Made by a program: the position numbers and the translations under genes
Source: Brachionus manjavacas
Taxonomy: Eukaryota > Rotifera > Eurotatoria > Ploima > Brachionidae
Assembly (NCBI GenBank): GCA_019054805.1
Contig: JAHQIY010000005.1
Location: forward strand, 2,463,501-2,527,500
Direction: 5' to 3'
DNA: 64,000 nt
Shown here: piece by piece, positions 6,131-46,100 of the stretch
Layout: each line of letters starts with the position of its first letter
Position numbering within the stretch: position 1 is the stretch's first letter
Notes under the pieces: model-generated
Told to the model about the DNA's origin: nothing
Database searches by the model: none
Seen by the model: only the letters and a program-made list of their open reading frames with translations

Positions 6131-6179
6131 GGATTGATTGGTTATTTTAGAAGAAGAAAATTTCAATTTAGTTACAGCT

Positions 6180-9720: not shown

Positions 9721-12700
9721 TTAAATATAAATTGGCGGCTTGTTCGAATTTAAATTTCCGGTAACATTTTCTTTGCCTATTTGATTCGAACCTTCATTCA
9801 AACTATCTGTTGTGGCATAAGAGTTAAAATTAGTGCTTTCCTTCAACTGGACTTTGTCGTTCATTGTCTTCTCGGAATAATTATCTTCATTCAGTGTCTT
9901 GCATGAAGTTGTAACAGAAGCCATCATCGAAGTGATTGTCGGCGAAAGATTTCTTTCCTGAGTATCCATGTTGTTCACATTTTCTATATTTTTAAAATCC
10001 ATTTTTTCGCTATCAGATTTCAATAAATTTTGATTAGCAGATATATTTTTAATAAAAGATTTAAAACTATTGTCATTATCATACTCATCCATCGAATTGG
10101 AAAAAAGTTTGCTATCAGTGGTTTCGTCGAAAAACCGACGAAATGTGAACTCGTACAGAACTGGGTTACCAGACCCATTTTGGCTTCCATTCAAATCCGA
10201 ATAATCACCGCCATTTCTATAAGTACTCGAGTATCCCCGGTGCACATTTTGACTTTGTAAATTCCGAGTTCGATTTAGCTGATCAATTCTAGCCTTTCGG
10301 TCGGCCAAAATCGAAGAATCAATAGGCTCAAAATTTGAAGTGTCTGTGGGGTGTTTTATGATCGGCTTGTATAAAGCTTCTGATCGCCGTAAGTTAGGAC
10401 CGAAATCGAAGCTCTTAAAAAATGGATGCGCTTTTATGCCATCAGCACCGAGTCTTGTTTCGGCGTCAGTACACAATTTGAATATTAAATCTTTGGCTTC
10501 AAGGCTAATTTTGACTACTTCCGGAATTTTAAGAGTGTTCTTCCAATTAATTACTTTTGCTTGTGTTCCCAGAGCTGTCTCGTCTCTAAAAGGCGGTTCA
10601 CCGATGATCATTTCATACAAAATCACACCAACTGACCACCAGTCACACGATTTTGTGTAGCCTTTACGAGACAAAATTTCTGGCGCTATGTAATTAGGTG
10701 TACCAACCAAAGAATGTGCCATCAGTCGACGCTCGCTGTTTTTTTGAAGCTTGTTAATTTTTTTGTCAAGAATACGATTCGGAGCGTCATCTTAAAAAAA
10801 AAGCTTAATTTAACAAATATTAAACCCAAATCTAAATAATAAATATTATTTTTTTAATTTATTTATTGAGTTTATGTTCTTTAAATACAGATAAAATTAA
10901 TCTAAATATTTAGTAAAACAATTTTAGTACAATAAAAACCTTGAGACCTTTACACTTTATCTGAGCCAAAATGAAAAATTCAGATCGAAAGAATTGTAAA
11001 TATCAAGAATTCGTAAATTGTCGGACAAATTTCAAAATTTAATTTTTGTTTTATTCATAAAAGAGAACAAACTAACTTCAGAATTCTTTAAAATATTGTG
11101 TAAAAAATGAAAATATTAATAAAGAAAAATTAAAGAAAATGTTTATTATTCTAATTATTCAATGTCATTTTTAATTATTTTTAAATTTCAATTAAATATG
11201 ACTATTTTCCTCAAAAAATTTGGAAAATTTTAAAGTTTTCCTTATTAAAAATTAAAAGTTAAAAAAAATAAATAATTTTATGTTCAGCTAAAGGTTAGAG
11301 AAATTAATATTGTAAATAATAGTTAATATTCTATAATTCAAAAAACATTTCGTAAATTGGCTATCAAGTTTGAAAAGGGGCAATTTTTTTTATTTTGTGA
11401 GCGAGCTAATGCTTTATGGAAAAATATTAAATCGTCATTTCAATGATTAAATCATCACATAAAATCAAAATTGATTGTCATATAAAATTAAACGGGGTCC
11501 GGGGCAGGGCCCTGGTTTAAGGATTCAGGTATGTTGTTGAATAGAGAACTATTAGTTAAAATTAAAATTAATAATTAAACTTTTAATGAATTAAAATCTT
11601 TAACTAAATTATCCAAATGACGATTTAATTATTGATATGACGGGTTTCTTTTCAGTTTAAGAACGATTCCATTGTTTTTTTATTTCATCAATTATTATAT
11701 TATATTTTATCTTTAAATGTGTTGAAGCGGTGACAAACATAAAGCAAAAATGGCATTATACAATATATATATATATATTTATATGAAATCGACTAATCTT
11801 TTTTATCTTAAGATAAAAAACAAACCAAAGAATGCATTTTTATAAATGTTTTTTTTGTCGATTTGGATTATTCCAAGGGGGGATAAAGGGTAAATGTGGT
11901 TTTATGTTAATTTTGAGGTAAAATGGATGAGTTTTTTCCAAAAAACTTATTGACTGTCTTTATCAAAATTATTAACGAACTAAAATTTTTATTTTAATTT
12001 AATTTTTTATCTAGTATTTCGAATGAAATCATAGAATCATAAGCTACAGTAAATAGTTTTGAATTCGAAAGTTTATGATAATTATAATTTAATCTTCAAA
12101 AATTTTTACCCCTTTGAAAAATTTAAGCTTTACCACATCTTACTATAGTAACAATAACTATAGTAAGATGTGTGAAATTAATGGAATTCCTTATATCATT
12201 TTCTAAAAAATACTGTACTCTATTTTTCAATGTGTACTTAATATTAATATCAGTATGCTTGTTAGTATTTTTTCTAAGAAAGAAAAATGTCTTGGCAAAA
12301 AATATGTATCGAGAATTGTTTAAATATTTAATTTAATTATTATTTATTTAAAAAAAAAATAAACGAGAATAATTTTCTAACTAATCATACATCAATTTCT
12401 ATTATACAAAAATATTTTCAAATTACATTTTCATTTGAAATGCAAACATATTTAAAAAATTTGCTCAAATATACTCAAAATTCACATTTTAAAACTTTAC
12501 AGAGAAAAAGCTTTTGATATAAAGTATGAAATTGACAGTAATCACTGAAGAAAACGAGTAATTAAATTTTCAACAAAAAAAAAATTCAAGAAATACTGAT
12601 TTACATTAATTTTTTAAATACTCAATTTTATTAGAAATTAAAAATAAAATTCAAAATCCTTTAGGAAATATCTTTTTTTTGGTAATTTGTTTGTAAAGGG

Positions 12701-15700
12701 TGAAAATAAGAGCAATGGATGAAAACAATTTTGCTGAAGTAGCATAAAATTTGAATTGAAGATAAAAAGAAAGTTTAAGCTACAAACAGAAACTTTTTAT
12801 ATGCATTAATTTATAAATACTCAAGATATTTTATTAAATAACAATTTAAAATTAGTTTGCAGAACTAAGTTTTAAATTTAACAAATTGTTTGGGGCTTAA
12901 AAACGCTAAACTCTCATCGCTATCATATAGAGCGGAGCTTGAAGACGGCTAAAAGAGAACTCAAATAAAAAAAATTAATGATCATAGTACCTTTGATAAA
13001 AACTTGCTTTAGCTTGCTTTTTTTTTAATTTTTTTTTCTCTCTAAGTAAAAGTTTCAAGAAAAAAGCTTTTGGATTTTCATGTCTAATGAATTTCTAAAA
13101 AAATTATTGTTTTGAGTCAAAAAAAGAATTTTTTGAATTTTTTTAAAGTTTATTTAAATTTTGAATCCCTCTCAAACAAAAGTTTCTTGTTTCACTTTTG
13201 AATTTAAACTCTTCGTAATTTATTAAATATTTGTTAATTCTATTTTATTATTTCTCTATCCATAAATCAATATTTAAAAATGTCCTGAAATTTTTTTAAA
13301 AAATATCTTATAAAAACTATTAATCTGAAAATTATTGACATAAAACGAAATAATACTTTATTTATCTAATTTTAAAAATTAAATTTTTTAGAACATTAAT
13401 TCTTGAGTTCTCATTTTAATATTCAAGATATTAAAAATTGGATCTACCCCAATAATCAATTAGCTTAATTTAAATTTTAATACCTGACTTTCTAAATAAA
13501 ATTCAAGTTATCTTAAGTTACAATTACTGACAAGGAAAATTAAAAAAAATATCGGCTTGATATAATCATTTCACCAAAGTTTCTGAAAAATCACGATTTT
13601 TAATAAAATATCATAAAAATGACAAATTATCTATAAATTTAATTTACAATATCAAAAATAAAGGTTACCCATAAAAAATTCTGTTTACAAATAAAATTAA
13701 ATAAAAGTAGTAAAGAGTGAATTCTCTTATAAATTAATCATTTTCTTTATTTTTCCACCAAGTTTTGACCAGAAAAGAATAAGAATGTGGCATATGGTTT
13801 TTAATAAATTTTAATTAATAAATTATCTTCAGCGTCGAAGCATTTATTGTTGCGAGTTCGTGATCATATTTTGTATTTGTATTTTAGTTTAAAAAAAAAC
13901 TGATTTCAAAATCGATCATTTTGAAATTTAAAAAAACATATTTTAAAAATTTTTATGAAAAAAATTAGAATTAAAAAATATCTTAAAACCATTAAGTGTA
14001 AAGCTCAAAGATTTACATTTTTGAAAGATAATCGCAGCATATTTAGTCGGGTTAAAATAATTATAGTAATTCAGGGTTGAACTGTTAATGGGATAAAACC
14101 GTGAATTCTTCATTGAATTACTATAACTTTTCTTTGAAAAAAAAATGTTTCCATTAAATAAAAAAAAGCATATTAAAAACGTCTTAGATAATAAAAATAA
14201 CCAATAAAAGAAATATTTTTATTTTTTTTATTTCATTTAAACGACTAATCTTCGCTACTTAAAGGAAAATGCCGATCTTCAAAAAAAAATTTTATTGATA
14301 ATTAGTAAAAATTTGAACAAAGAACTCTATTGAATTTAATTTTTTATTCTGATTAAGAATTTCTTTTTGATAAATTCCCAAATTTAACCAATTTTCAGTT
14401 ATTTCAGAATTATGAAAAAAACTTTTTAAAAATGCCGAGAAGTAACTTCCAAATAACCCAAAAAGCTTATAGCGAAGAAACTTTACAATATCCATTGCCG
14501 AAATTGAAGCTAAAAATTTAAACATACATCAAGCTTCTGTGCGCTTTAACATTCCAAATTCAACACTTAACGATCGAATAAATGGAAAGTATAAAAGACC
14601 TTCCAATGGTTAAGTTGCTAATCCATGGATCCCTAAAGAATTTGAAACGCTTTTAGCTTAAGTGTTCAAACAATTAGCTGATTTATAAGACAGTATTTGG
14701 AAAAGTCAAAACAAATCAGAACAAATGGATTTCTTGTGAGAAATGTAGCAATTTGTATTGTGGGAAATGCCTTCCAAGAGGCTTTGATTTAAAAATGGAA
14801 TTTTTTTGTTCAAAAAAGTGTTCTAAATTTGATTAATTTTGTTTTAAAATAGGATGCATATATTTTCTTATACTTTTTTTGAACTAAAATTACTTGAATT
14901 TATGTAATTCACGGATATACTCCAATATAAGGGTTGAATGGTAATGAACCATCTTTTTTATTTTAACTATAAATTGTGAACCATTATTTTATTTTAAATA
15001 AAGTTTTTTTTTTTTAAATTAAAGACACTATTCTCTTTTATTATTTTATATTTTTTCGAAAAAAAATTCTCAAAACTAAATAGCGATCAAATAAAAGAAT
15101 TCACAGTTTTGCCCCATTTGACGATATTAATTAGCAAAATAAAATTGAGACCATTGATTGAAAATATTACTGAATAAAGATTGAAAATAAATCTATTTAA
15201 ATAAATTTATTTATTTTTGGCGAAATTAATTTATGATAAAATCAATAACGTCAAATAGCATGAATAATACAAATTATTGAAATTCAGCAATTTAAATCTT
15301 TTTTCAGTAATATTTTAAAGAAATATTCGTGAAAATAAAATTAATGGCCAAAAATATCGAATTGCTTACGACCAAATTCAAAATTTTTGACAAAAATTCC
15401 TAATTTTTTTTTGTCATCAAATTTAGTCAATTTTTTCTAACAAAAATTAAACATTTTTCATGTACGATCAAAAAATAATTTTCCACGAGTTTTCCTCGCT
15501 CACACACTCATACATATTTACTGATCTACTGATTATTTTTATGGCATAAAAAAAAAACCTTCTCAATAAAAATCGCCTGTCCAAAAAATTTGAAGCTTTT
15601 CAACTTTGGCGATAAAAATAATAAAAATTGAAAATTAAAAAATTAAAAAGCATTTTCCACATTTGGCTAATAGTTAATGTTTTGGAAAAACAAAATTTAA

Positions 15701-17510
15701 AATTACCTATTATGTAATTTTGAGTATTGTGAGTCCAGTGAAATCCAGTGCATAGACCAAAATCGGTAAGTTTTATATGGCCATTTCGATCTATCAAAAT
15801 GTTATCTGGTTTGATATCGCGATGAATAAAGCCCAGATTGTGAACACTCTCAATGGCACATGTCAACTCGCCAATATAAAACTGAGCCAATTTTTCACTA
15901 AATACGCCTTTTTTGATCAGCAAATTCATTAGGTCACCACCAGGCACATAGTCCATGACAAAATAGAGATTTTCATCATCCTGAAACGAGTAGTACAATT
16001 TCACTACCCATTCATTGTCGGCTTCGGCCAAAATGTCCCGTTCAGCCTTTACATGAGCAGCCTGATTCCTGTTAAACACATCGGACTTGTGCAGTACTTT
16101 CATTGCGTACAAACGCTGAGGGTCATCTTTTTTGCGCACCAAATCAACTTGACCAAAAGCACCAATGCCCAATGTTTGTATCTGCTCAAACATTGACTTG
16201 TTCATCTTGGCACGTCTCAACCGCAAATAATTGGTCTCTTTTTGACGCAACAACTTTCTCATTTGCTCTCTGACCTCATTAGATAGGCCCACTTTTTGCA
16301 TTTCGTTCTCAAGCTGCAGTCGCCTGTATTCTCTTGCTTTGTGGTGTTTGAGCACGTTTTCAGCATGTTGTTCCATAAAGAACTTGAACGCCTGAGGCGA
16401 ACATTGTCGAATTGCGCTAAAAGTGGACGCATTCGACGAATTCGACGACATGGTTGCATTTTTCAATCGCTGCTCCTCCAAATCCTTGATGGCTTGCTCG
16501 TAGGGCACGGGCGGTGGCGGCCGAGCCATTGGCAAATTGTTCTGCATCTCGGTGTCTTCTATTTTGCCCGGATACGGCGGCGGTGGTGGCTGCTTTTTGC
16601 GGTCAAAAAAAGTGTACAAATTTGATTGTATGAAAAATTGGTAGTTTTGCATGTTTTCGTCCTGGACGCCTGTGTGGTTGAAAACACTGTTGTTGTTTGC
16701 GGACGAGTTGAACGAGCCCTCGAAGTCAAAATTGCGGCTATTGTTGCCTTTTTCCGAGTTGAAGCTGTTCTCCAGCACTTGGTTGAGCAGATTTTTGTGC
16801 TGTTTGGAGTGAAAAATTTGAGGCGGAGCGTTTGGTGGTGGCGGTGGCAAATTGGCCGGTGGGGGAAGCTTTTTGCCCATCGACGACTCGTAGCTCGGAG
16901 GGGGAGGCGGCGGAGGCTGAAGTCTCTTTTTGCCATATTCAGGCAGTTGTTCGGCTATTCGACGAGCACTCTCTGGCGGCACAATTGCCTGCTGGGCTTT
17001 TGGTTTGACCACTTTTTTCGACTGCACCGACTGAATTACCAAGGGAGACTTGCAAATTTTGGGCCTTAGATATTTGGGAACTGGAAGAGCGGCGCTGGAC
17101 CGCTTCATGCTCGTGCTCGCATTTTCGACAGCCATTTGGTCGTCGGCTTTTTGCGCCGGTGGCGCCGTCGACTTTGAAGGCGAGGACGGATACGGATAGT
17201 AGTTTTGATAGTTGGGAACATAAGAGTTGCTTGTTTGGTAAAATGTGCCAGACGAGTTTAACGACGAGTTGAGGAATGATAAATTTTGGTAGTTGGAATA
17301 CTGGTAGACGAGTGGCTGGGGCGAAGACTGGTAGGTAAAGTAGCTGAGATTGGCCTGGCTGGGTGGAGGTGGTGGAGGGGGCAGAGGCGGTGGCTGGAGC
17401 GACTGGGTTGCAAATTGGTAGCTATTCTGCGGATAGAACGAGTACATTTCGTTGTGGTTTTGAGACACTTTGGTGCTCAGCGTTGAGCTGGATCGATTGA
17501 ATTCTTCCAT
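9721..17510 (-). CDS. LATS: LATS/Warts serine/threonine kinase (Hippo pathway)
   Basis: Two coding exons, 17510..15707 and 10790..9721, joined in phase 1 give 957 aa, close to LATS1/2 and Warts (about 1090-1130). Known role: an NDR-family kinase that, with MOB1, phosphorylates YAP/Yorkie. Residues 1-370 are Gln/Pro-rich with PPPPPP runs and two PPxY-type motifs (PPSY, PPPY) of the kind bound by WW domains. About 375-430 is the MOB-binding helix (SPQAFKFFMEQHAENVLKHH). The kinase has GIGAFG at 448, Lys471, HRDIKPDN at 563 and DFG at 583. The activation segment holds Ser628 in AHSLVGTPNYIAPE, and the hydrophobic motif YEFTFRRFF holds Thr817. These are the sites targeted by autophosphorylation and Hpo/MST kinases. 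No UBA domain is evident. The N-terminal ATG is the first in the long open frame. A 4.9-kb intron splits the kinase domain just after DFG. Confidence 0.92.
11426..11629. repeat. Possible MITE with 15-bp terminal inverted repeats
   Basis: ATTAAATCGTCATTT at 11426-11440 is repeated perfectly in inverse at 11615-11629. Between them lies a short GC-rich core (11491-11516, GGGGTCCGGGGCAGGGCCC) that is very unlike the surrounding intron. No duplicated target site was seen. Chance cannot be excluded in such AT-rich DNA, but the GC core favours an inserted element. Confidence 0.35.
12134..12172. repeat. Perfect 16-bp hairpin in the LATS intron
   Basis: CACATCTTACTATAGT is followed by a 7-base loop and its exact reverse complement. 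No flanking element recognised. Confidence 0.7.
14084..15122 (+). mobile_element. Internally deleted pogo/Tigger-family transposon (psq-type HTH plus Cys finger)
   Basis: Outer repeats GATAAAACCGTGAATTC (14092-14108) and, inverted, GAATTCACAGTTTTGCCCC (15098-15116) resemble pogo-group ends. Inside on the plus strand, 14497-14640 reads IHQASVRFNIPNSTLNDR then INGKYKRPSNG and NPWIPKEFETLLA, a pipsqueak-type helix-turn-helix of a DDE transposase. At about 14720-14825 it reads WISCEKCSNLYCGKCLP then FFCSKKC, the PHD-like Cys finger found at the C-terminus of such transposases. The catalytic DDE part between them is missing, so this is a non-autonomous deletion copy. It lies in the LATS intron, opposite in direction to the gene. 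Confidence 0.6.
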
Positions 17511-17598
17511 TTTGCCGGCAAAGAAAAGGAAAAATATGTTCAGTAGTTTTTTTTCTTTTTTAGCTTGACATTGCTTTGCCTATTCTAGAAAAACAAAA

Positions 17599-23830: not shown

Positions 23831-26800
23831 ATGTTGATGAAAAAATCATTTTACATTTTTTTCATGATATTCATGTCAATCAGTCTAATAGCTGGATTTG
23901 GTAATAAAAGAAAGAAAATTATTCAGCATGGTGATTTAATGATTGGTGTTCTATTACCGGTGCACGAACAACCATCATATGACGATTCAGCCAAAAATTC
24001 AAAATCAAAGTGTGGTCTTATCCGGGACCAGTATGGAATACAAAGAGTCGAAGCATTGCTTTTTATGCTAGATAAAATAAACAGTGAGCTAAATTTACTT
24101 CCAGGCATAAAACTAGGAGTCGAGATTAGAGATGAGTGTTGGGTGACAAGTGTAGCTCTGGAAGAGACTATAGATTTTATCAAGCATACAATTGCTAGCG
24201 CCAAAGATGAGGCAGAAAGTGATGAAAATGTTCCGATTTTTTTAGATAAAGATCAAATGACAGAGTACACTTTCAATAATTCAAGAGATAAAATATGCCA
24301 AAAAATACTTAAAGATAAGGAAAATGAGAACAAAATTTTGGCAGTAATAGGTCCTGCAGGAAGTGATTTGGCAATTAATGTGCAAAATTTAGTCCAGTTG
24401 TTCGACATACCTCAAGTAGCCTATTCAGCCACGAGCACAGATTTAAGTAATAAAAAAATGTACAAAACATTTTTGCGAGTAGTCCCAAGCGATTATCTTC
24501 AAGTTAGAGCAATGACAGATCTAGTGGTCAAAATGAACTGGACCTATGTTTTCGCTATTTATACTGACGGAAGCTATGGTCAAGGCGGAATGGAAGCATT
24601 CAGAAATAGAACTTCGCATCTAAATATATGCCTAGTAATGTATGAAAAAATTACGCAATATGCAAATGATGAAGACTATGAGAACTTGATCAAAAAAATG
24701 AACGATACCGAATCAGCAAGAGTAATTGTTTGTTTTTGTTATGGTGAAACTATTAGAGGTTTGCTTGGGGCTATTAATCGCCTTGGACTCAAAGGCCGTT
24801 TTATAATAATTGGAAGGTTTTATGAGCATTTGCTTTTCTTTTTATAATGATTTTGTAATTTGAAAATAATTTAAGTGATGGATGGTCGGATAGAATTGAT
24901 GTGGCTAGGGGCTATTATGAAGAGGCGATTGGTTCATTGTCCATAAAGGCACACTCGCCAGTTGTTACTGAATTTCATGACTATTTTGCTCGTCTAAATC
25001 CTTCTAATAATTTGCGTAATGCTTGGTTTAATGAATATTGGGAGTACAGATTCAATTGCTACATTGAAAAAGAATCAAAAAACATCTACAAAACTCCGTG
25101 CAAAAGTAAATATATTTCATTAAAGTGATAAAAATTTTACTTAAAGTCAAATAATTAAGAAAATAATTAAATTTAATAAAATTAAGATAAAATTTTTTTT
25201 AATTATTCAAAAATTAGTAACTTGTTTTTTAAAACAGGAGTTTTTTAATCAAGTAGTGATGTTTATTTTTAAATAAAGTATAAACCGTAAACTCTTGTTT
25301 ACTACCTCATGGGGTTCAAATAAAAAGGTGGGGGGGTTGTAATTTAAAAAGTAAATTTCTAGTATAGGTATTTTAAGATTGAAAAAATTAGAAACCCGGG
25401 GTAAAAAAAAAATTATTTAATAATTTAAATGGGCTTATAATATAAAATGCTTATTTTTTAAATGGGCTTATAATGAAAAATTCATAGTTTTTGAAAAAAA
25501 ATTCGATTCTTCACAGAAAAAATAGAAAAAAGTACCAAAATAATTGATTAATTTTTGGTGAGCTTACAAATTGAAAAATTAAACGAAAAAAATTTTAATT
25601 TATTTCCATTTCCGACTCATCTTCATGATGACTACTTGATGATGATGAAGAATGTTGAGCAATAGTAACGATCTGAGCTTGTGCTGCATTAAGCATCTCT
25701 TGCCATGCTGCTGCTTCTTCTTTTGATGGCCTACCTCTTTTTCTTTTTGGCAAAGCTTGAAGCTGTTGGCTTTTCATATAAGTTTTAGTTTAAGAAATTT
25801 TATGGAAATTATATTTGTAAGAAAAAAATAAAAAAAAAAATAAAGAAGCTCTTTTTATTCTAATTTTTGGTGTGTTCACACTTTTTACAAATGATGTGTT
25901 TTAAAGTCTTAAGCATTTGCAAAAATAATATAAGAATGATGAAATAATGATCACGGGTGTGCAATTTTTTTAAAATTTTAAGCTCATGGGTGTGTATTAT
26001 TTTGAAAATTTCAATCCCATGAGACAATAAAATTTTTTTTTATAATACACACTGGGGCTATGATGAAATTCAGCTAAACTTCATATAAGTATTTCAAAGT
26101 TTTTAAATTGAAATCCCGGGATTATAATGAAACTTTTTTTGAAAAACCCAGGGCTTCTAGTATATATTATGGTGGTGGGGCAATAGCTAAAACCATACTT
26201 GTACCCCGGGGTAGTAAACAAGAGTTTACGGTAGTATTTTTTACGAAACTAAAAATGTAATTATCGCATTAATTTACCAGTTTGAATCAAATATTTTTGA
26301 AGGTTTAATATGACAATCATCAAGTTAACAAATTAGAAAATACCAAATAAAAATAAGTCACCAGATTAAGTAGCAAAATGTTTTAATAATTTTAATTCAT
26401 TTTTTTTTCGTGTTTTTCATTTATTTCTATGCTCAAAATTGTAACAAAATCAAAAATAAATTTTCATTTTTTAAAAATTAAAATAAAAGCTATTCCATGT
26501 TTAAAGCAAGAAAAAAATCATATAGTTTTGATTAAATTTTATTATCTAAGAAAAAAAATCTAAAATTAAAAGACTTTCTGAGCATTCATTGAATCTAACC
26601 CCGAATTATTTTTTGGAATTGTAAAGTATTCCTGAAAACTACTAATTTTATCCAAAAAAACTTTTTATGGATATGAAGTTATGAAGATTCTTTTAATTCG
26701 ATCACTTAAATTCACTTTAATTTGAATTTTTTTTAATTAAAGCAAATTGGTTCTAAAAGGGTTGATTCATTAAAATATTTCAATATTTAAAAAAATACAG

Positions 26801-29800
26801 AAAATTTTTAAAAAATTCCTGGAATTTTTTTTACAGCTCCAGTTTCCACCGTAAAATGAATCAATGAAAGTGGTGAAAACCTATTTTGGTTATTCAACGA
26901 TCACAAAAATGAATATTTTGCAGACAAAATTGCCACGAATAATTTGAAGCTAGTAAAAACTATTTTTGTTTTATTTTGATTACTTTACACTCAAAAACTG
27001 AAAAATTTTGGAAGCCTTTAGTTATAAGCTGAATTTGAGTTCTTCAACTAGACCATAAAATATACTTTTCAACTTTTCAAGTTTTAAAAATTTTGAAATT
27101 TTTTTTCTACTTCCGATTGTGCAAAGCTATCCAACAAGATGATAGTGGTATGCTTCAAATAAACATGGCTACTAAACGAAGCTACAAGCCTCAACCAAGT
27201 GATAATAATATCTTAAGAATTAAGAACTTGGAACGATTTGATTTAAAAATTCAAGATGAACAACAAAAGTGATCTGGTTAATTGGGATCAATCTAGTTTT
27301 TTTGTATCCCTAGTCATATATCTTACAACACATCAAGTCATGAATATTAAATAACCAGGCACCTAGAGAAAATTTGCAATGAGAACAAATTTTTATATTA
27401 GTTATCTATTATTAATTATCTTAGTCAAGTAGTAATCGAGTATTCATCTACCCAATTCAATAATCACTTTGAATTTTTTTTTAACTGAAAGACTATGCAA
27501 ATGACTTTATTAAAATGCAGATAATTGCGTTTCATCTTTAGATTAAATTGAAGATTTAATACCATAATATTTTTTATATCATTATTGTTATTATATAAGC
27601 TACAAGCTGAGTTATTAATATTGTGTTTCTTTTTTCAAAAAAATATTTAATACAATAGAAAATCGCTTAATTATTTTTTTTGTGGCTAGATTTTAATTAA
27701 TTAAATTAAGAAATCTAAAGTTAGCTGCTTAAATTTTTTTATCTTCATTAGTTTAAATTATTTAAATTTATTTTAATAAAAATGGCTGACTCGTGGTCAA
27801 GCCACCGGTCAGCCAACATTATATTTTAATTAAAAACGAAAATAGATTTTAAATTTGAAAAATTTATTAAGCCTTCTTTTACACACGGCAAGTTTTTTTC
27901 TCTATTTAACTTTTTTGAAATTTTATAACTACGATGTTTCATTAAAACTCAATACTAAAGCATGTTAAAATTTTAAATATAATTACGCGATTATTTTTAG
28001 AAATGTAAAATAGAAAAAAAAAATTGCTAAATACGAAATCACATTCTTAGAGCAAATGCTAACAAAATTTTTCTCAAATTAAGTGAAAGGTTTTTCTCAT
28101 TATTCCAGTTTCCCATTTCTTCGAATTGAATTATCGAATTTATTTAACACTTTTTGACCATTTAAAATTACATACCTAAAAGCTTCTTGAATAATTAACT
28201 TTAAAATTTAATAATTTTATTTAAAAAAAATTCTAAATAAAGAATCAGAATTCAAAGTAGAAATACAATGTCTACGACTTCAAATGACATGTATTTAACC
28301 ATGTTATGATAAAAAAAATAATAAACAATTTAATTTGAAAATCAAAAATTACTTAAAAATGATATTTTGAAAATTTTTTGATTACTTAAAAATCAAAAAT
28401 TTTCAAGAAAAGCAATTAATTTTCGCCACAATTATGTTTTTTTAACTCTCAAATAATTTTTATCTTTAATTTTAATCTATATGTCTCATAATTTATAAAA
28501 AAATATAAAACTTAAATGTCTAGATTTTTTAAATAAATAATAATAATATATTTAATTAGTTAAATTCTTAAGGATCATTAATTTTTTTCAAATTGGTAAA
28601 AATATCAGATCCTTAAATTAAAAAAAAAAGTGAATTTATCAGATGACAAATCGACTAATTTAATATTATTTTTTTTCCAGCTTAATTAAAATAATGAAAT
28701 TTTTTTAAAATGAAGGAAAATGTCCGATTGAATTCCGCGAAATAGGAGATAAATGTTATTGGTTTTCGAACGAAAATTTGAATTGGCAAGATGCACGTAA
28801 AAGATGTGAAAGCAAATATCATTATTCGGATCTGCTCGATTTAAATAATCAGCAAGATTTAAAAGATTTATTTATTCACATTAGCAATCAAAGTGAGATA
28901 AAAAAATTTTATTCAAGAATGCATGTTAGAATAGAACTTGATACTGATACTGAAAAATCAAATATTGTAAATGAGTATAATTTTGATGCTGAGTCCATAA
29001 TTTTTCGAAGTTGTGGTAAAACAGCTAAGCGAAATGCCTTTGAGCAAAATTATGAGATGAGCGACTTTGAATCTAGTATCAGCTCCGAAGATGTAATTAC
29101 ATTTTACAACAGTAAAATGTACAACAACCAACAATGTATTTCCATCATGATATCAAACAAATCTGGTGAATTTGATTATTGCGTTAAATTTAAGAATTGT
29201 CATTCAAAGTTTCCTTTTGTATGCAAAATAAATACAGAAAAGATGTTGGAAACATTTTCTGGAGACTATTATCCAGACTCGCTTCACAATTACCAACAGG
29301 ATCCTAAAATGAGCTATGTTATAAATGCTCTGCTAGCAGTAACTCATGGTTTAGCTCGGATCCATAAAACTGTATGTTTGAATAAAAAAATTAAGCAATT
29401 TGAATTTTTGATTAAATTCAAATGATCATGTTCAAAAATTATCACTAAAAGAAGGTTTTTTCTTAAATTTTTTTTTAAAATTTTATTGCAGATAAAAATT
29501 TTCAAAGTAAAATAAATTTTTTCTGCAAATTTGTGCAAAAATGTATTGAATGCAGATTTATGTACAATACTTGGATATGGTTTAATTTGGTTTTCTACAC
29601 ATGAAAAAATGTTTTTGAAATTTATTTTTTTAAGGATGTACCTAAAACATGGAAAGCAACTACGGAACGCAGGAATGCAATGTGATGGAATGAAATAAGG
29701 ACCTAAAATGCGGAACATAGCAAAATACGAAATGTTTTTCTATGTAACATGAACAAAATTCTCTTAAAAATTACGAAATATTTTATTCTTAAATACGGAA

Positions 29801-32800
29801 TAAAAAATTTAAATACGGACATACTTATTTGCGTAAAAAATTTTCTGGGAATGCTAGCTAAAAAACGGAATGAGTTACGGAACAGACAAAAAATATTTAT
29901 TTAGCTTAAATATTTAACAATTTCAAAATTGAAACATAACTTAAGTTGAGGAAATTTTTCTTCAAGAAAATTTTTTCCGTCCGTACTTTGATTGTATATT
30001 TAATATTTTAGAATAGAAATTTTCGTAATTTTAATAGAATTTTTTTCCGCATTAAAATATGATCTTGTTCCGTAAATTAGTACATGTTCCATAGAAAAAC
30101 AATCCGTATTTTGATGCCTCATTACATTTCATTCCAGCATTCCGGGGTTGCGTTTCGTGTTCTAGGTACACCCAATTTTTTATTTAAAAGTGCTTAATTT
30201 TTTTTTTAATTAAAATTTAATTTTTGAAGATTTGATCATTCTTAAGCTTAAATTTGCCAAAATTAAACCTCCAACTAATTTTTTTTAAGGTTTGTGGAGG
30301 ATTGCCAGGTTTATGCGATGGAATGAAAAAGATAACTGGAACTGAATTGTTTGCTAATATAAGAGAGAGCTCGTTCAGCGGAATAACTGGAGAAAAAATT
30401 GATTTTGACTCTAATGGAGATCCTCCAGGAAGGTTTTATTTTCGAAATACTTAACTTTTAAAGTAATTATTCAAGAAGCTTTTAGATATGTAATTTTAAA
30501 TGTGCAAAAAGAGTTAAATAAATTCGATAATTCAATTCGATATGTGTACAAAGAAGTGGGAAACTGGAATAATGAGAAAAGACTTTCACTTAATTTATCT
30601 AAACTTGTGTTTCCGAAAAGTGAGCAAAATTTTGTGAGCATTTGCTCTAAAGAATGTGATTTCGGATATGTAAAAGTAGGCTTAATAATTTTTTTCAAAT
30701 TTTTCAAATCTATTTTCATTTTTAATTTAAAAAATTAAAAAATTATTTAAAATATATAAATAACAAGAATACAAAAGTAAAATTTGTAAAACAAATGTCA
30801 CTAAATAGGAGCTCGAATACAAGTAAAATGCCAATTTGATAAAAACTAACACCCAGATCGCGATTAAAACTTCACAAAATGTTCTTTATTCATTTGAATA
30901 AATTGAAAAATATTGTCTCGGTCTCTTCCTAATTTAAGACTTTTAAGCGTATTTTAGAGATTGTTTAAAATCAGACTTGTTTTTAAGTCATAAGTCTTAA
31001 ATCAAATCAAGTCAATGACTTGAATTTTTTTTTTAAGTCAAGTAAATGATTTAATAAATCCATATTTGATACCAATAAAGTAGTTGCTTCCAAATTCCTG
31101 GCCGTTAATCTTGACCTATGTGCTCTGTAAATGTAACCAGATTTAGAAAATAATTCTTTCAAATGGTCCAGATGAAACAGGTATTGATTAAAATTTTTGT
31201 GCAAGTCTTAACTTTGACTTAAAAAAAAAAAAATTCAAGTCAAAAATTAATGACTTTGACTTAAATTTTTGTTACTTAGACTTAAAACTGTGACTTACAA
31301 ACAAGTCTGTTTAAAATATGTCTTAATGTCTATAGTTTATGATATTTTTTTTAATAATTTCAATTAATTAATTACGAATAAAAAGTGCTTAAAAGACCCA
31401 TGAGGCATGGTGTTAAAATAAGGTTCAATATATGAAATTATTATTATTGTTTCATAAAATTGAAAATTATTTTCTTCTAATTTCATTTTTTAGTGGTGCA
31501 TTATGTCAAATAAGCTTTTTGCTTTTTTTGATTTTAGAACCGAAAAAATGACGCCTTTTTATAAAATTTTTAAATTGTGAGAAATTTAAGAAGAGAATGC
31601 AATTCATTTTTTAATTTCAGTTTTTATTTATTGAAATTATTTTCTATTTAAAGTTTTATCAAGCAAAAAATTGATGAAAAATTTTGAAAAATTTTAAAAA
31701 ATTTTAAAAACCAAATTAAAAAATATATTTTTTAAGCAAATAAAACAAGGTGGTCTTAAATGCTGTTGGAACTGTAAAAAATGCGAAGAACATTCTTACA
31801 TTTTGGATGGTCATACATGTCAAGAGTGCGATTTGGGATTTTGGCCGAATCAAAATTTGACCGGTTGCGACAAACTCTCTTTAAAATATCTAAAATGGAG
31901 TGAGCCTGCATCAATATTTGCTTTGCTTGTTAGCACAATTGGAATTTTGATTAATACATTTGTAACTCATATATTTGTCAGATTTTCGGACACTTCTGTA
32001 GTAAAATCGACTACCAAGCAATTGAGTTTTATTATATTATTTGGCATCTATTTGTGTTATTTAACTACCATTCCATTAATTTTAAAGCCATCCTTGATTA
32101 GTTGCTATTTGACTCGTATTCTCCCAGGATTAAACCTTTCAATTATTTATGGGGCTCTACTAACTAAAACTAACCGAATCGCCAGAATCCTATCCCAGAG
32201 TAAAAAAAGATTTTTTACCAAAAAACTTCGATTTATGAGCATCACATCACAAATTTTAATTTCGCTATCCATCATTTCTATTGAGTGTTGTTTGATCATA
32301 ACCGGATTATTCTACGAACCGAAGGTGATTTATATAAATTATTCCAAGCGGAGTGAAGCTCGATTAGAGTGTTCAATAGAAAGAATATCTGTCATTGGAC
32401 CACTAGGCTATAACATGTTCCTTGTGGTCATGTGTACACTCTATGCAATACAAACCAGAAACCTTCCGGAAAATTTCAACGAAGCAAAATTCATTGGCTT
32501 CAGCATGTACACCACGTGTGTCATTTGGATAGCTTTTTTTCCTCTATTTTTTGGATCCGATTTCAAAGTAATCACTCTGAGTTTAAGCATTAGTTTTAGT
32601 GCCACAGTTATTCTCGCTTTTCTATTCATACCAAAGGTTTACATCATAATTTTTGAGCCTGAAAAGAATCAGCGAAGCGCCTTTACCACTACAAAGAATT
32701 TACGCTGCCACATAGGATCTAATATGCAATCCAGTAGTTTTCTTGACTATGACATGCCATCGTCACAGCGAAAAAAATCCAATGGTATGTTTCTGCTAGC

Positions 32801-33551
32801 TGGTTTGGCCGGGCTTAGGACCCCAAGTCAAATAACAGAATCAAAACCCAAATATTCTATTAATTTCACCCGATATGCTTTTCGACCTAAAATTTCCAAA
32901 TTTTATGGATATGGCGAAAAAAAGAGCATAGATTCGATGGATAATGCCATGTCCATTTATCAAATTAGTGACAGGTCCTGTCAGACAAGTCTTGAATATT
33001 TGCCAATTTTAAGAGATTCGATCAAGAAAAGAAAAGGCACAAGAATCGATAAAAAACATTCTATTGATGAAACGGATAAAAACGACAAAGAAAGTGAAGC
33101 TAAAAACTTTGGAGCTCTTGGTGCTCTTGGAAATATTTTATTTTTACCGCTAATAGCTACAAATAAAAAAAAAGAGGACTTGGATAAGCAAGAAAATTTT
33201 GAAAATGATTCGCATAATAAAAACAAAGATGAGTGTTTTAGAATTTCGACCGATTCATTTGAAAAAAAAAGTTTGGAGGAAAAATATTGTCCCGATCAAG
33301 ATATTAATTTAACCGTAAACATCGAAAAAAAAGATAAATTAAGGTTTGCTAAGGAAAATGAGTTTCTTAATTCTAATAATGAATCGATTCTGGAAGAGTG
33401 TGATGCTTTTTCAAACGAACCAACTTTGGATGATTATTCTGATAAAATGAATCATGAAGATGAATCATTGGAAGATCTCAGAAAAATATTTACTAAAAAT
33501 CGAAATCTTGTTTTACAATGGGATTATGTACAATCGAGTGGATATTTATAA
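23831..33551 (+). CDS. Group I metabotropic glutamate receptor with a C-type-lectin-like domain inserted in the ligand-binding domain
   Basis: Six exons with consistent phases: 23831..24816, 24876..25105, 28716..29371, 30290..30432, 30486..30675, 31737..33551; 1339 aa. Order: signal peptide (1-22); Venus flytrap, first part (33-405); C-type-lectin-like domain (about 408-577); flytrap remainder (about 595-720, QDPKMSYVINALL, LCDGMKKITG); Cys-rich domain (741-780, CCWNCKKC); seven membrane helices (about 790-1040, with the intracellular KTNRIARIL and NFNEAKFIGFSMYTTC); long cytoplasmic tail. YSATSTDLS, FLRVVPSDYLQ, VIVCFCYGE and IGSDGWSDR match mGluR1/5 best. Glutamate-contact residues are kept: Tyr68, Arg72, Ser178, Ser199, Thr201, Asp221, Tyr249, Asp330, Arg335, Lys603. 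Known family role: class C GPCR coupled to Gq, dimeric at the surface. The C-terminus reads DYVQSSGYL, recalling the mGluR1/5 end but not a class I PDZ ligand. An AATAAA lies about 40 bases after the stop. Confidence 0.92.
25284..26232 (-). mobile_element. 949-bp element with terminal inverted repeats and a small AT-hook ORF
   Basis: ACCGTAAACTCTTGTTTACT at 25284-25303 is matched in inverse up to 26232, and the similarity runs on (ACC-C-GGGGT-CAA). The inside is GC-richer than the intron around it, with GGGCTTATAATGAA-like phrases and CCCGGG near both ends. On the minus strand, 25777..25595 is an open frame of 60 aa starting with ATG: PKRKRGRPSKEEAAAWQEM, an AT-hook (R-G-R-P), then an Ala/Gln helix, a Ser run and an acidic end. 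I do not know the family; target-site duplication is unclear (AGTAT occurs on both sides, offset by two bases). It sits in mGluR intron 2. Confidence 0.65.
27115..27272 (+). other. Orphan coding-like frame in mGluR intron 2
   Basis: About 50 codons without a stop and with codon use richer than the surroundings: AIQQDDSGMLQINMATKRSY, KPQPSDNNILRIKNLERF, DLKIQDEQQK, stop. It is not in phase with any splice site that would fit the receptor. It may be a transposon remnant or an unknown exon. Confidence 0.25.
27784..27814. repeat. GC-rich imperfect hairpin
   Basis: GGCTGAC..GTGG, a 5-base loop, and CCAC..GTCAGCC form a 13-bp stem with two mismatched positions. It is a strong GC island in an AT-rich intron. 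It may be the tip of an old repeat or a structured RNA; nothing else identifies it. Confidence 0.5.
28716..29230 (+). other. C-type-lectin-like domain within the mGluR flytrap
   Basis: Residues 408-577 read KCPIEFREIGDKCYWF, LNWQDARKRCESK, then, after a less typical middle, NNQQCISIMISNKSGEFDYC and CHSKFPFVCKI. This has the long-form lectin pattern: C-P...C-Y-W-F...W-q-A-r-k-r-C...C...C...F-v-C. The W-I-G-L signature is not recognisable and no Ca-binding EPN/QPD motif is seen, so sugar binding is doubtful. The domain starts at the exon border (phase 1) and has no intron at its end: the same exon runs on into the flytrap sequence DSLHNYQQDPKMSYV. Confidence 0.85.
29637..30170. mobile_element. 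Foldback-like MITE with long terminal inverted repeats, in mGluR intron 3
   Basis: The ends match in inverse: TGTACCTAAAACATGGAAAG on the left against TGTACCTAGAACACGAAACG read from the right. The similarity continues inward for well over 100 bases (GGAATG-AATGT-ATG, then TTTTTCTATG-AACATG). The arms are full of CGGAA/TACGGA motifs pointing inward, about six on each side, like the subterminal binding sites of a transposase. No coding frame. No clear target-site duplication was found. Confidence 0.7.
30972..31309 (-). mobile_element. Short hAT-family element with 8-bp target-site duplication, in mGluR intron 5
   Basis: The element starts CAGACTTGTTTTTAAGTCA and ends with TGACTTACAAACAAGTCTG, and is flanked on both sides by TTTAAAAT, a perfect 8-bp duplication typical of hAT. 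On the minus strand, 31204-31007 reads HLKELFSKSGYIYRAHRSRL, then TARNLEATTLLVSNMDLLNH, the C-terminal dimerisation domain of hAT transposases. The rest of the transposase is gone, so the copy is non-autonomous. AAGTC/GACTT motifs recur near both ends. The intact duplication suggests a fairly young insertion. Confidence 0.85.
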
Positions 33552-40176: not shown

Positions 40177-43100
40177 CTAGAAATAAGCATCACTATGATC
40201 ACTTTCATAGTCTTCAATATTAGGTCCCGTCAACCATGCTCTTGGTATGCCTTTAAAATCTTCAAAATTAATCGGACCTGGCAAGGATATTTGACTTTTT
40301 ATTGTTGATGATAAGTCTGTTCCGAAAAGATCCTTGTTTCCGTTCACATTAATTCTCGGAATCATCAAATTACTCTTAGTCAAAAACGCTGGATTAATAG
40401 CTCCCGTTTCTTCAGGGTTCTAAATATTTAAAAATTTATTTAAATAAAATTTATTTAAAAAATTCATACTTCGATTGTATTTAGGTTTTCATTTTTGCCA
40501 AATATTATATCCCAATTTACTTCGTCATCAGCGGTAAATTTATCCCATTCAGCATCGAATTCTTCATTCCAATTTGTTGGTTTTTGCAAATCTTCGAAAA
40601 AATTGTCTTTGTCAAAGTCTTCGCTATTTTCAACTTGGTGAATTTGGGTTTCTTCAAAATGTTCGTCTTGCTTAACAGTCACATCTTCAACCTTGGCTTC
40701 TTTTCTAAAAAATTTCTAGTCATTATTTAAAAAATATATTTTCATTTGTTTTTAAATACTTTTTTCTAACAATAAAACAAAACCATAATAAAATGCATGC
40801 TATAAAGCTTAAAATTAAAATGACAATGCCAATAACAAATAAAATCAGCCCATTGATCTCACAGGTGTCTCCAAAAAAAAAACTTGAACAATAACAATAC
40901 TCAATATCATTTTTGTTGTAACAGATGCCATTATTTTGACATTTTATAGTACATTCTTGAAAAAAGAGTAATATAAAGGCAAATTAAATATTTAAATTTT
41001 TCCTACTGATACAATCATTATTGTTACTTTGATATTCAAAGTATCCATTTTGACAAACGCATTTTTTTGTTTTAAAAAGTGATATTTCACATTTTCGATT
41101 TTCAAATAAACAATCATCGTTAAAAAAATTGCAGATTTCTCTATCTAGGAAACAATTTAATCAAATTGAAAATTACATCAAATTTGCAAATTTTACTCTC
41201 AGGAATGTTAATTTCGGTATATTCTTGAATGTCATTTTTCAATTCATTTAAGTAAATTTCAAGTTTTTCAGACAATTTAGACGCATTGAGGCAATCTGCT
41301 TCTATCTGACAGAAATCTTCTTTCTTATTTATAGCAAAATATAAACTATTATTAATAGAATTTAATTGAGAAAAGACAAGAGCATCAGATAAACTATGCT
41401 TCAAATTGTCAATCAATAAATACGTATAATTTTTGGTTAGATGACTTAAATCCCCATTATTATTTGAAAAATTGTTGGTAAAATACAATGAAAATTCAAC
41501 ATCAAAACGAAAGAAACAGTCTTCAATATTATATTCAAAATCATTGAAATTCGAACAGTTATTGATTAAGTTTTGAAATTGAAAACTGGAATCGTTAATT
41601 GATGAAAGCGAATAATCAAGACGGTTTTGTATAATAAGATTTCGAACAAAAGATGGAGGGCACTGATTTTTTAGAAAAGAGGATTCAATTTTACCGGTAT
41701 AATAAAGTTGAGATAAAGAACTTTTAATAAATTGATTAGTAAATTGGGGAATAGTATAAGAATTCGAATTGATCTAAAAAAAAACATTTAAAGAAAATGT
41801 GATAAAAAAATGAAAAACTTTACCACATCGGTAAATGAGTCGTTAAAATTTGATAAAAATCCATCGAAAATATCACAAATATCTTTAAATGCAATAAAAA
41901 CTGGCAAAACAACATAAACAGGAACAAATGCTAAATAAAACAAATTAATAAAAGGTAAATAAAAAATAAAAAATTACGTGTGCATCTATTATTAAAAATA
42001 ATCGTATCAATAGGGCATGAACAATCGCCAAGATGACAAATAGAATCAAAGATTAAACAATCAGAATTGAAAAGACAAGGCTTAAAGCTAGAAGCAAAAT
42101 TTGTAGACGATGAAACAAATGCAATCGAAGAAGAAATAATTGATGATGTTTCAGTTGATGTCGAATCTTGACCTGTCGAAACAATTGGTGTAGTTCCAGT
42201 AGTTTCAACAGTTCTTGTTGAACCAGTTGAAGCAGTCATTGGTGTTTCAGAACTAGAAACTTTGCTCGATGATTTTTCAGTTGATGTTGAATCTTGACCT
42301 GTCGAAACGATTGGTGAAGTTCCAGTAAATTCAACAGTACTTGTTGATCCAGTTGAACCAGTCATTGGTGTTTCAGAACCAGAAATTTTGCTTGATGATG
42401 TTTCAGTTGATGTTGAATCTTGACCTGTCGAAACAGTTGGTGTAGTTCCAGTCGCTTCAACAGTTCCTGTTGAACCAGTTGAACCAGTCATTGGTGTTTC
42501 AGAACTAGAAACTTTGCTCGATGATGTTTCAGTTGATGTTGAATCTTGACCTGTCGAAACAGTTGGTGTAGTTCCAGTAGTTTCAACAGTACTTGTTGAA
42601 CCAGTTGAACCAGTCATTTGTGTTTCAGAACCAGAAAATTTGCTTGATGATGTTTCAGTTGATGTCGAATCTTGACCTGTCGAAACAATTGGTGTAGTTC
42701 CAGTAGTTTCAACAGTTCTTGTTGAACCAGTTGAAGCAGTCATTGGTGTTTCAGAACTAGAAACTTTGCTCGATGATGCTTCAGTTGATGTTGAATCTTG
42801 ACCTGTCGAAACAGTTGGTGTAGTTTCAGTAGTTTCAACAGTACTTGTTGATCCAGTTGAACCAGTCATTGGTGTTTCAGAACCAGAAACTTTGCTTGAT
42901 GATGCTTCAGTTGATGTTGAATCTTGACCTGTCGAAACAGTTGGTGTAGTTCCAGTAGTTTCAACAGTACTTGTTGAACCAGTTGAACCAGTCATTTGTG
43001 TTTCAGAACCAGAAAATTTGCTTGATGATGCTTCAGTTGATGTTGAATCTTGACCTGTCGAAACAATTCGTGTAGTTCCAGTCGTTTCAACAGTTCTTGT

Positions 43101-46100
43101 TGAACCAGTTGAACCAGTCATTGGTGTTTCAGAACTAGAAACTTTGCTCGATGATGTTTCAGTTGATGTTGAATCTTGACCTGTCGAAACAGTTGGTGTA
43201 GTTCCAGTCGTTTCAACAGTTCTTGTTGAACCAGTTGAACCAGTCATTGGTGTTTCAGAACTAGAAACTTTGCTCGATGATTTTTCAGTTGATGTTGAAT
43301 CTTGACCTGTCGAAACAGTTGGTGTAGTTCCAGTTGTTTCAACAGTACTTGTTGATCCAGTTGAACCAGTCATTGGTGTTTCAGAACTAGAAACTTTGCT
43401 CGATGATGTTTCATTTGATGTTGAATCTTGACCTGTCGAAACAGTTGGTGTAGTTCCAGTAGTTTCAACAGTACTTGTTGAACCAGTTGAACCAGTCATT
43501 TGTGTTTCAGAACCAGAAAATTTGCTTGATGATGTTTCAGTTGATGTCGAATCTTGACCTGTCGAAACAATTGGTGTAGTTCCAGTAGTTTCAACAGTTC
43601 TTGTTGAACCAGTTGAAGCAGTCATTGGTGTTTCAGAACTAGAAACTTTGCTCGATGATGCTTCAGTTGATGTTGAATCTTGACCTGTCGAAACAGTTGG
43701 TGTAGTTCCAGTAGTTTCAACAGTACTTGTTGAACCAGTTGAACCAGTCATTGGTGTTTCAGAACCAGAAACTTTGCTTGATGATGCTTCAGTTGATGTT
43801 GAATCTTGACCTGTCGAAACAGTTGGTGTAGTTCCAGTAGTTTCAACAGTACTTGTTGAACCAGTTGAACCAGTCATTTGTGTTTCAGAACCAGAAAATT
43901 TGCTTGATGATGCTTCAGTTGATGTTGAATCTTGACCTGTCGAAACAATTCGTGTAGTTCCAGTCGTTTCAACAGTTCTTGTTGAACCAGTTGAACCAGT
44001 CATTGGTGTTTCAGAACTAGAAACTTTGCTCGATGATGTTTCAGTTGATGTTGAATCTTGACCTGTCGAAACAGTTGGTGTAGTTCCAGTCGTTTCAACA
44101 GTTCTTGTTGAACCAGTTGAACCAGTCATTGGTGTTTCAGAACTAGAAACTTTGCTCGATGATTTTTCAGTTGATGTTGAATCTTGACCTGTCGAAACAG
44201 TTGGTGTAGTTCCAGTTGTTTCAACAGTACTTGTTGATCCAGTTGAACCAGTCATTGGTGTTTCAGAACTAGAAACTTTGCTCGATGATGTTTCAGTTGA
44301 TGTTGAATCTTGACCTGTCGAAACAGTTGGTGTAGTTCCAGTAGTTTCAACAGTACTTGTTGAACCAGTTGAACCAGTCATTTGTGTTTCAGAACCAGAA
44401 AATTTGCTTGATGATGTTTCAGTTGATGTCGAATCTTGACCTGTCGAAACAATTGGTGTAGTTCCAGTAGTTTCAACAGTTCTTGTTGAACCAGTTGAAG
44501 CAGTCATTGGTGTTTCAGAACTAGAAACTTTGCTCGATGATGCTTCAGTTGATGTTGAATCTTGACCTGTCGAAACAGTTGGTGTAGTTCCAGTAGTTTC
44601 AACAGTACTTGTTGAACCAGTTGAACCAGTCATTTGTGTTTCAGAACCAGAAAATTTGCTTGATGATGTTTCAGTTGATGTCGAATCTTGACCTGTCGAA
44701 ACAATTGGTGTAGTTCCAGTAGTTTCAACAGTACTTGTTGATCCAGTTGAACCAGTCATTGGTGTTTCAGAACCAGAAACTTTGCTTGATGATGCTTCAG
44801 TTGATGTTGAATCTTGACCTGTCGAAACAATTGGTGTAGTTCCAGTAGTTTCAACAGTACTTGTTGATACAGGTGAACCAGTCATTGGTGTTTCAGAACC
44901 AGAAACTTTGCTTGATGATGCTTCAGTTGATGTTGAATCTTGACCTGTCGAAACAATTCGTGTAGTTCCAGTCGTTTCAACAGTTCTTGTTGAACCAGTT
45001 GAACCAGTCATTGGTGTTTCAGAACTAGAAACTTTGCTCGATGATGTTTCAGTTGATGTTGAATCTTGACCTGTCGAAACAGTTGGTGTAGTTCCAATAG
45101 TTTCAACAGTACTTGTTGAACCAGTTGAACCAGTCATTGGTGTTTCAGAACTAGAAACTTTGCTCGATGATGTTTCAGTTGATGTCGAATCATGACCTGT
45201 CGAAACAGTTGGTGTAGTTCCAGTCGTTTCAACAGTTCTTGTTGAACCAGTTGAACCAGTCATTGGTGTTTCAGAACTAGAAACTTTGCTCGATGATTTT
45301 TCAGTTGATGTTGAATCTTGACTTGTCGAAACAGTTGGTGTAGTTCCAATAGTTTCAACAGTACTTGTTGAACCAGTTGAAGCAGTCATTGGTGTTTCAG
45401 AACTAGAAACTTTGCTCGATGATGTTTCAGTTGATGTCGAATCATGACCTGTCGAAACAGTTGGTGTAGTTCCAGTCGTTTCAACAGTTCTTGTTGAACC
45501 AGTTGAAGCAGTCATTGGTGTTTCAGAACTAGAAACTTTGCTCGATGATGTTTCAGTTGATGTTGAATCTTGACCTGTCGAAACAGTTGGTGTAGTTTCA
45601 GTAGTTTCAACAGTACTTGTTGAACCAGTTGAACCAGTCATTGGTGTTTCAGAACTAGAAACTTTGCTCGATGATGTTTCAGTTGATGTCGAATCATGAC
45701 CTGTCGAAACAGTTGGTGTAGTTCCAGTCGTTTCAACAGTTCTTGTTGAACCAGTTGAACCAGTCATTGGTGTTTCAGAACTAGAAACTTTGCTCGATGA
45801 TTTTTCAGTTGATGTTGAATCTTGACCTGTCGAAACAGTTGGTGTAGTTCCAGTTGTTTCAACAGTACTTGTTGATCCAGTTGAACCAGTCATTGGTGTT
45901 TCAGAACTAGAAACTTTGCTCGATGATGTTTCAGTTGATGTTGAATCTTGACCTGTCGAAACAGTTGGTGTAGTTCCAGTAGTTTCAACAGTACTTGTTG
46001 AACCAGTTGAACCAGTCATTTGTGTTTCAGAATCAGAAAATTTGCTTGATGATGTTTCAGTTGATGTCGAATCTTGACCTGTCGAAACAATTGGTGTAGT

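What the first reader, a model, noticed from the sequence alone, without database searches (positions are those of the whole stretch)
23831..33551. A glutamate receptor with a lectin-like domain built into its ligand-binding domain
The sequence shows a complete group I mGluR in which about 170 residues with the cysteine pattern of a long-form C-type-lectin-like domain sit between the two parts of the Venus flytrap. The proof of fusion is internal: one uninterrupted exon (28716-29371) carries both the lectin pattern and the next flytrap block (QDPKMSYVINALL), and the phases of all five introns fit. I know of no mGluR with this arrangement. By inference, a membrane receptor could combine glutamate sensing with binding of a glycan or a protein partner, or use the insert to steer dimerisation.
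Basis: partly seen in the sequence, partly recalled or inferred. Interest (0 to 1): 0.92.

Follow-up and report, generated by a model that had tools for sequence, protein, structure and literature searches.

The report
Glutamate receptor carrying a lectin-like insert
An animal gene encodes a glutamate receptor with a C-type-lectin-like domain built into a surface loop of the part that binds glutamate, an arrangement not seen in the receptors we could compare, though it still needs proof from transcripts and relatives.

Summary
A six-exon, 1339-aa model rebuilds with GT-AG introns in frame. It is an mGluR1/5-like receptor (best E 1.7e-251) with ANF_receptor, NCD3G and 7tm_3 domains. Homology to mGluR5 stops at residue 405 and resumes at 597. 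[quoted passage not shown] One uninterrupted 218-codon frame matches both C-type lectins (CLEC10A, 9e-6) and mGluR1 (0.019), so the fusion is in the DNA itself. The insert lies inside lobe 1, 28 residues before the equivalent of glutamate-contacting Lys409, not between the lobes. Twelve of 13 glutamate contacts are kept. EPN, QPD and WND are absent, so calcium-dependent sugar binding is unlikely; a protein or non-canonical glycan partner is my best guess. Weak points: no RNA; Pfam's CTLD score is below cut-off; the structure model failed (pLDDT 35); no animal genomes could be searched; an in-phase acceptor at 29277 would give a receptor without the lectin. New variant of a known kind.

The parts
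23831..24816 (+). exon 1: hydrophobic, signal-peptide-like start (by eye) and first part of the Venus flytrap (model residues 1-328)
   Evidence: 175 of 348 aligned residues identical to mGluR1 over flytrap part 1 (exons 1-2)
24876..25105 (+). exon 2: flytrap up to the Cys390-Cys404 loop (Cys390 aligns with mGluR1 Cys378; Cys404 aligns with a mGluR5 cysteine); ends in phase 1
28716..29371 (+). exon 3: CTLD plus the resumed flytrap block QDPKMSYVINALL in one open frame
28721..29224 (+). C-type-lectin-like domain, model residues 408-575 (Cys408, 419, 436, 505, 546, 561, 567, 575)
29306..29308 (+). codon of Lys603, equivalent of glutamate-contacting Lys409 of mGluR1
   Evidence: alignment to 1ewk_A
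29277..29371 (+). shorter form of exon 3 if the phase-1 AG ending at 29276 were used as acceptor: would give an in-frame lectin-less receptor (hypothetical)
30290..30432 (+). exon 4: flytrap continuation
30486..30675 (+). exon 5: end of flytrap and start of cysteine-rich domain
31737..33551 (+). exon 6: rest of cysteine-rich domain (NCD3G), seven-transmembrane domain (7tm_3, to residue 1035) and a tail of about 300 residues

Best explanation
The locus encodes a glutamate-gated group I mGluR in which a calcium-independent CTLD hangs from a surface loop of lobe 1. SHOWN at sequence level: the in-frame fusion, the kept glutamate contacts, most flytrap disulfide cysteines and the missing calcium/sugar motifs. 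INFERRED: a CTLD's N- and C-termini lie side by side, so it can be plugged into a loop without breaking the flytrap. The receptor therefore still closes on glutamate and signals, while the CTLD binds a second, probably protein or glycoprotein, partner on a neighbouring cell or matrix. That partner would place the receptor or shift its response, doing from within the receptor what ELFN adhesion proteins do to mGluR6 from outside. ORIGIN (inferred): a CTLD exon entered the phase-1 intron after the Cys378-Cys394-equivalent loop and later fused with the next flytrap exon. My odds by step: encoded fusion about 0.9; retained glutamate receptor about 0.8; own partner for the CTLD about 0.4.
For: Gene model and phases. 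Both homologies in one exon. Match to mGluR1/5 in two stretches broken at the insert. ANF_receptor, NCD3G, 7tm_3 above cut-offs. Eleven of 12 glutamate-contact positions before the insert are kept, Ser164 being Gly, and Lys409 is Lys603. CTLD profile 27.8 bits against a best of 9.4 in 5000 shuffles. Coding frame and openness. EPN, QPD and WND absent. A review passage says that the CTLD fold brings its termini together and that group V CTLDs lack the calcium motifs (PMC7618208, passages). The mGluR6 ligand-binding domain is needed for ELFN1 binding (PMC10973816, abstract and passages).
Against: No transcript and no animal relative was available. The Pfam Lectin_C hit is below its cut-off (18.2 against 22.6 bits) and was not reported for the full-length protein. 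The C-terminal half of the CTLD is weak (30 of 5000 shuffles as good), and hhalign aligned only the N-terminal 38 columns. The only acceptor that keeps the whole lectin, 28716, has a poor tract (8 pyrimidines of 18); a stronger-looking acceptor 35 nt upstream (28681, 14 of 18) stops in all three phases. The structure prediction failed; Foldseek on it gave no E <= 0.001 and no CTLD among the 50 of 1090 rows shown. Nothing tests a ligand.
Confidence: 0.6

Rival explanations
1. Splice choice: the main receptor is an ordinary mGluR made with the acceptor at 29277 (or another in-phase AG), and the lectin is a minor or regulated isoform.
For: 29277 is phase 1, follows TATTATCCAG, and joins exon 2 to give ...KTPCKNSLHNYQQDPKM, close to mGluR1 ...NESLEENYVQDSKM (ENYVQDSKM printed, the rest recalled). 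The lectin acceptor 28716 looks weak and may compete with 28681.
Against: 12 of the 36 AG sites listed in 28660-29320 are phase 1 and open, so the phase match alone means little. The lectin frame is open and coding-like, so it is translated in some transcript or was until recently.
Confidence: 0.25
2. The insert is made but inert: a tolerated decoration of a variable loop, or a CTLD decayed from its ancestor, with no ligand of its own.
For: CTLD middle and C-terminal parts are divergent; calcium motifs missing; lobe-1 loops of class C receptors are where receptor-specific contacts are described (T1r loops 1-3, PMC5457512 passages).
Against: The six long-form cysteines and the frame are intact.
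Confidence: 0.25
3. Dimer steering: the insert packs on the partner subunit and changes homo- or heterodimer choice or the activation threshold, without an outside ligand.
For: In T1r2a/T1r3, loop 3 of lobe 1 makes an inter-subunit disulfide with loop 2 of the partner (PMC5457512 passage). Cys505 and either Cys561 or Cys567 are spare to the usual long-form set.
Against: That T1r loop 3 is the loop of this insertion point was not established here. The eight cysteines of the insert can all pair internally.
Confidence: 0.15
4. Assembly or gene-model artefact: a lectin gene and a receptor gene wrongly joined.
For: The locus is rearranged: intron 2 holds a decayed inverted copy of the exon 5 region and an element with 23-bp perfect terminal inverted repeats.
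Against: Both homologies share one open frame that needs no splice; a random join in frame with intact flytrap resumption is very unlikely.
Confidence: 0.04

Closest known systems
Group I metabotropic glutamate receptors (mGluR1/mGluR5)
   Same: Flytrap, nine-cysteine domain and 7TM; glutamate contacts including Arg78 and Lys409; flytrap cysteines 67, 109, 289, 291, 378
   Different: CTLD of about 170 residues inserted in lobe 1; Cys140 aligns with Phe, though Cys156 lies in the same loop; no PPxxF Homer motif after residue 1035 (motif recalled)
C-type-lectin-like receptors (by sequence CLEC10A is the best PDB hit, then CLEC4A and NKG2-A)
   Same: Long-form start CPxxF...CYWFS...NWxxAxxxC and terminal FPFVCK
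   Different: Inserted inside another domain; longer, divergent middle; no EPN, QPD or WND, in which it resembles the calcium-independent group V described in PMC7618208 (passages)
Class B GPCR type annotated with Lectin_C
   Same: A CTLD on a GPCR (one table row, PMC8687355, passage)
   Different: 7tm_2 family, other companion domains, no flytrap listed
Hydra Sweet Tooth receptor tyrosine kinase
   Same: Invertebrate receptor with extracellular CTLDs (PMC2680970 passage)
   Different: Kinase receptor with four CTLDs

Membership tests
Class C GPCR, mGluR | Flytrap + NCD3G + 7tm_3 in one protein | tested here: met
   Pfam: ANF_receptor 1.1e-69, NCD3G 7.2e-12, 7tm_3 4.5e-59, all above cut-offs
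Class C GPCR, mGluR | Glutamate-binding residues incl. Arg78 and Lys409 (replaced in class IV, PMC6307864 passage) | tested here: met
   12 of 13 checked contacts kept, Ser164 is Gly; residue list beyond Arg78/Lys409 recalled
mGluR group I | Closer to mGluR1/5 than to other groups | tested here: met
   12 mGluR1/5 chains with 7TM 794.8-840.7 bits; full-length group II/III chains 526.8-576.6 bits (60 of 113 sequences shown); no tree with invertebrate sequences made
mGluR group I | Gq coupling | not testable with these tools
   needs a cell assay
C-type-lectin-like domain | Significant sequence match to CTLDs | tested here: met
   PDB phmmer 9e-6; yardstick profile 27.8 bits vs 9.4 best of 5000 shuffles; but Pfam Lectin_C sub-threshold, 18.2 < 22.6, and C-terminal half weak
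C-type-lectin-like domain | Six long-form cysteines in order | tested here: met
   Cys408, 419, 436, 546, 567 (or 561), 575; assignment of the last pairs is by eye, MAFFT placed Cys546 differently
[quoted passage not shown]
   AlphaFold2 without homologues, mean pLDDT 35.2; Foldseek no match at E <= 0.001
Calcium-dependent C-type lectin | EPN or QPD, and WND motif | tested here: not met
   none of the three in the exon 3 protein

The most novel reading that the evidence does not exclude
A two-input receptor: glutamate in the flytrap and a second, cell-surface ligand on a CTLD whose last cysteine lies 28 residues before the Lys409 equivalent are read together, and splicing at 28716 or 29277 decides whether the cell makes the two-input or the plain version.
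Probability: 0.15. Interest if true: 0.85.

Novelty: new variant of a known kind. Interest (0 to 1): 0.6.

Why it matters
As far as I know (recalled), mGluR ectodomains keep one layout across animals. A CTLD built into lobe 1 would show that the flytrap tolerates a whole folded domain close to its ligand site, give a natural design for receptors that read a neurotransmitter and a surface partner at once, and offer a directly testable case of how synaptic or sensory receptors gain recognition functions.

Tried and rejected
Own genome: none held. Relatives: viral contigs with exon 3, exon 1 and the 7TM exon and genome contigs with exon 3 and the 7TM exon gave none; these collections are viral and prokaryotic, so absence says nothing about animals. 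Structure: AlphaFold2 on exon 3 alone gave pLDDT 35, and Foldseek on that model showed no CTLD in the 50 of 1090 rows printed; I treat both as uninformative. NCBIfam: one chance-level hit. hhalign: N-terminal 38 columns only, and two of my options were ignored by the program. Calcium-dependent lectin: rejected on missing motifs. Separate lectin gene: rejected because the exon 3 frame has no ATG before the CTLD and runs on into the flytrap block. Acceptor at 28681: rejected as a coding acceptor because all three phases meet a stop. Literature: ten searches; some searches looked for this architecture or for rotifer mGluRs. Their listings named no mGluR or other class C GPCR with a CTLD; of the papers listed by those six I opened passages of seven (PMC2680970, PMC3703292, PMC5969738, PMC6307864, PMC8687355, PMC12716839, PMC8791074) and none whole. 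The library is open-licence papers only.

Full report
WHAT WAS CLAIMED.

GENE MODEL. I rebuilt the gene from the sequence: six exons, 23831-33551, 4020 nt, 1339 aa and one stop at the end. The five introns start GT and end AG, with phases 2, 1, 0, 2, 0.

RECEPTOR. Pfam gives ANF_receptor (1.1e-69), NCD3G (7.2e-12) and 7tm_3 (4.5e-59), all above their cut-offs. Against PDB sequences 113 distinct sequences match at 1e-5, of which 60 were shown. The 12 mGluR1/5 chains that include the 7TM lead with 794.8-840.7 bits; full-length mGluR2/3/4/6/7/8 chains follow at 526.8-576.6 and CaSR at 383.2-400.7. With one mGluR5 chain (7fd8_A) the first matched stretch ends at model residue 405 and the second starts at 597; with mGluR1 they end at 393-394 and start at 596. 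The flytrap part before the insert is identical to mGluR1 at 175 of 348 residues. Of 12 glutamate-contact positions there, 11 are kept (Ser164 is Gly), and Lys409 corresponds to Lys603. The contact list is recalled, except Arg78 and Lys409, which a passage of PMC6307864 names as critical and as replaced in class IV mGluRs. Cys67, 109, 289, 291 and 378 are kept. Cys140, which bridges two mGluR1 subunits (PMC5457512 passage), aligns with Phe, but a cysteine (Cys156) lies in the same loop. The flytrap + NCD3G layout is known from animals only (PMC12716839 passage), so the genome is probably an animal's; the phylum was not tested.

THE INSERT. Exon 3 is open for 218 codons from the CTLD to the donor site. 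The chance of that at this composition is about 2e-8 (exon model) or 1e-8 (intron 2 model). Codon usage supports the CTLD frame but did not discriminate frames in the 40-codon flytrap block. The exon's own PDB search lists 70 matches at E up to 1 (60 shown): the best are C-type lectins (CLEC10A 9e-6, residues 2-47), and mGluR1 chains match residues 190-216 (1ewk_A, 0.019). Two LIM-domain chains (0.17, 0.18) are at chance level. Pfam Lectin_C reaches E 0.0044 with 18.2 bits, under the 22.6 cut-off; it was not reported for the full-length protein. A profile of seven recalled mammalian CTLDs scores the first 185 residues at 27.8 bits; the best of 5000 shuffles is 9.4. Split in parts, the N-terminal 60 residues score 31.4 (0 of 5000 shuffles as high), residues 60-185 only 7.1 (30 of 5000 as high). 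hhalign with the same set gave 91% over the N-terminal 38 columns only. So the domain is a real but divergent CTLD, secure at its start, likely at its end by cysteine order (Cys546, Cys567, FPFVCK at 575), with an unusual middle. EPN, QPD and WND are absent.

WHERE IT SITS. Three residues separate Cys404 (Cys394 of mGluR1, by position and recall) from the first CTLD cysteine, and the last CTLD cysteine is 28 residues before Lys603. This is lobe 1 (lobe boundaries recalled), in the loop before the Lys409 helix. The CTLD fold has its ends together (PMC7618208 passage), which makes a loop insertion physically easy. A lobe-1 loop called loop 3 crosses to the partner in taste receptors (PMC5457512 passage); whether it is the same loop I did not establish.

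SPLICING CAVEATS. The whole lectin can only be entered through the AG before 28716, whose 18-nt tract has 8 pyrimidines. A stronger-looking AG before 28681 (14 of 18) meets stops in all three phases. The AG before 29277 is phase 1 and would yield an in-frame receptor without the lectin. 12 of 36 AG sites in the listed stretch are phase 1 and open, so this is a possibility, not a finding.

LOCAL REARRANGEMENT. Intron 2 holds an inverted decayed copy of the exon 5 region (27824-28217 minus; 77% over 224 columns with 38 gap positions, then 87% over 63), so exons 3 and 4 lie between inverted repeats. It also holds a 949-bp stretch with perfect 23-bp terminal inverted repeats (25284-26232). The locus has been reshuffled close to the lectin exon, which fits a gained exon but does not prove it.

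FUNCTION. Best reading: a working glutamate receptor with a calcium-independent recognition module on lobe 1. A precedent for adhesion proteins acting on an mGluR ligand-binding domain from outside is mGluR6-ELFN (PMC10973816 abstract and passages). No step from ligand onward is shown.

NOVELTY. CTLDs on other receptors are known (a class B GPCR row, PMC8687355; Hydra Sweet Tooth, PMC2680970). Six literature searches for this layout or for rotifer mGluRs listed no class C GPCR with a CTLD; the one paper that held mGluR, CTLD and rotifer together (PMC8791074) names them apart (passages). Animal proteomes could not be searched, so sister species may share the design.

Noticed in passing
27824-28217 (minus), in intron 2: Inverted, decayed copy of the exon 5 region (30445-30731) of the same gene; exons 3 and 4 are thus bracketed by inverted repeats that could pair in the pre-mRNA (exon skipping or circular RNA is conceivable).
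   Followed up: partly
25284-26232, in intron 2: 949-bp stretch with perfect 23-bp terminal inverted repeats, probably a DNA element; contains a short minus-strand ORF (25595-25789) with an AT-hook-like KRKRGRPSKEE (by eye), no Pfam hit.
   Followed up: partly
29721-30113, in intron 3: Inverted repeat arms (54 nt at 78%, 40 nt at 85%), perhaps a small hairpin-type mobile element.
   Followed up: no
41931-49652 (minus): 2573-residue open frame made mostly of Ser/Thr/Gly-rich repeats: 57.8 copies of a 126-bp unit at 94% matches, 42142-49422; mucin-like.
   Followed up: partly
9721-17579 (minus): Protein kinase pieces in two open frames (Pkinase 2.1e-40 and 7.6e-24) with a proline-rich N-terminus; looks like a LATS/Warts-type kinase (name from recall).
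   Followed up: partly
6062-6487 and 8256-8684 (minus): Two reverse-transcriptase fragments (RVT_1).
   Followed up: partly
28681: Strong-looking acceptor TTATTTTTTTTCCAG 35 nt before the lectin exon, with stops in all three phases; may compete with 28716.
   Followed up: partly
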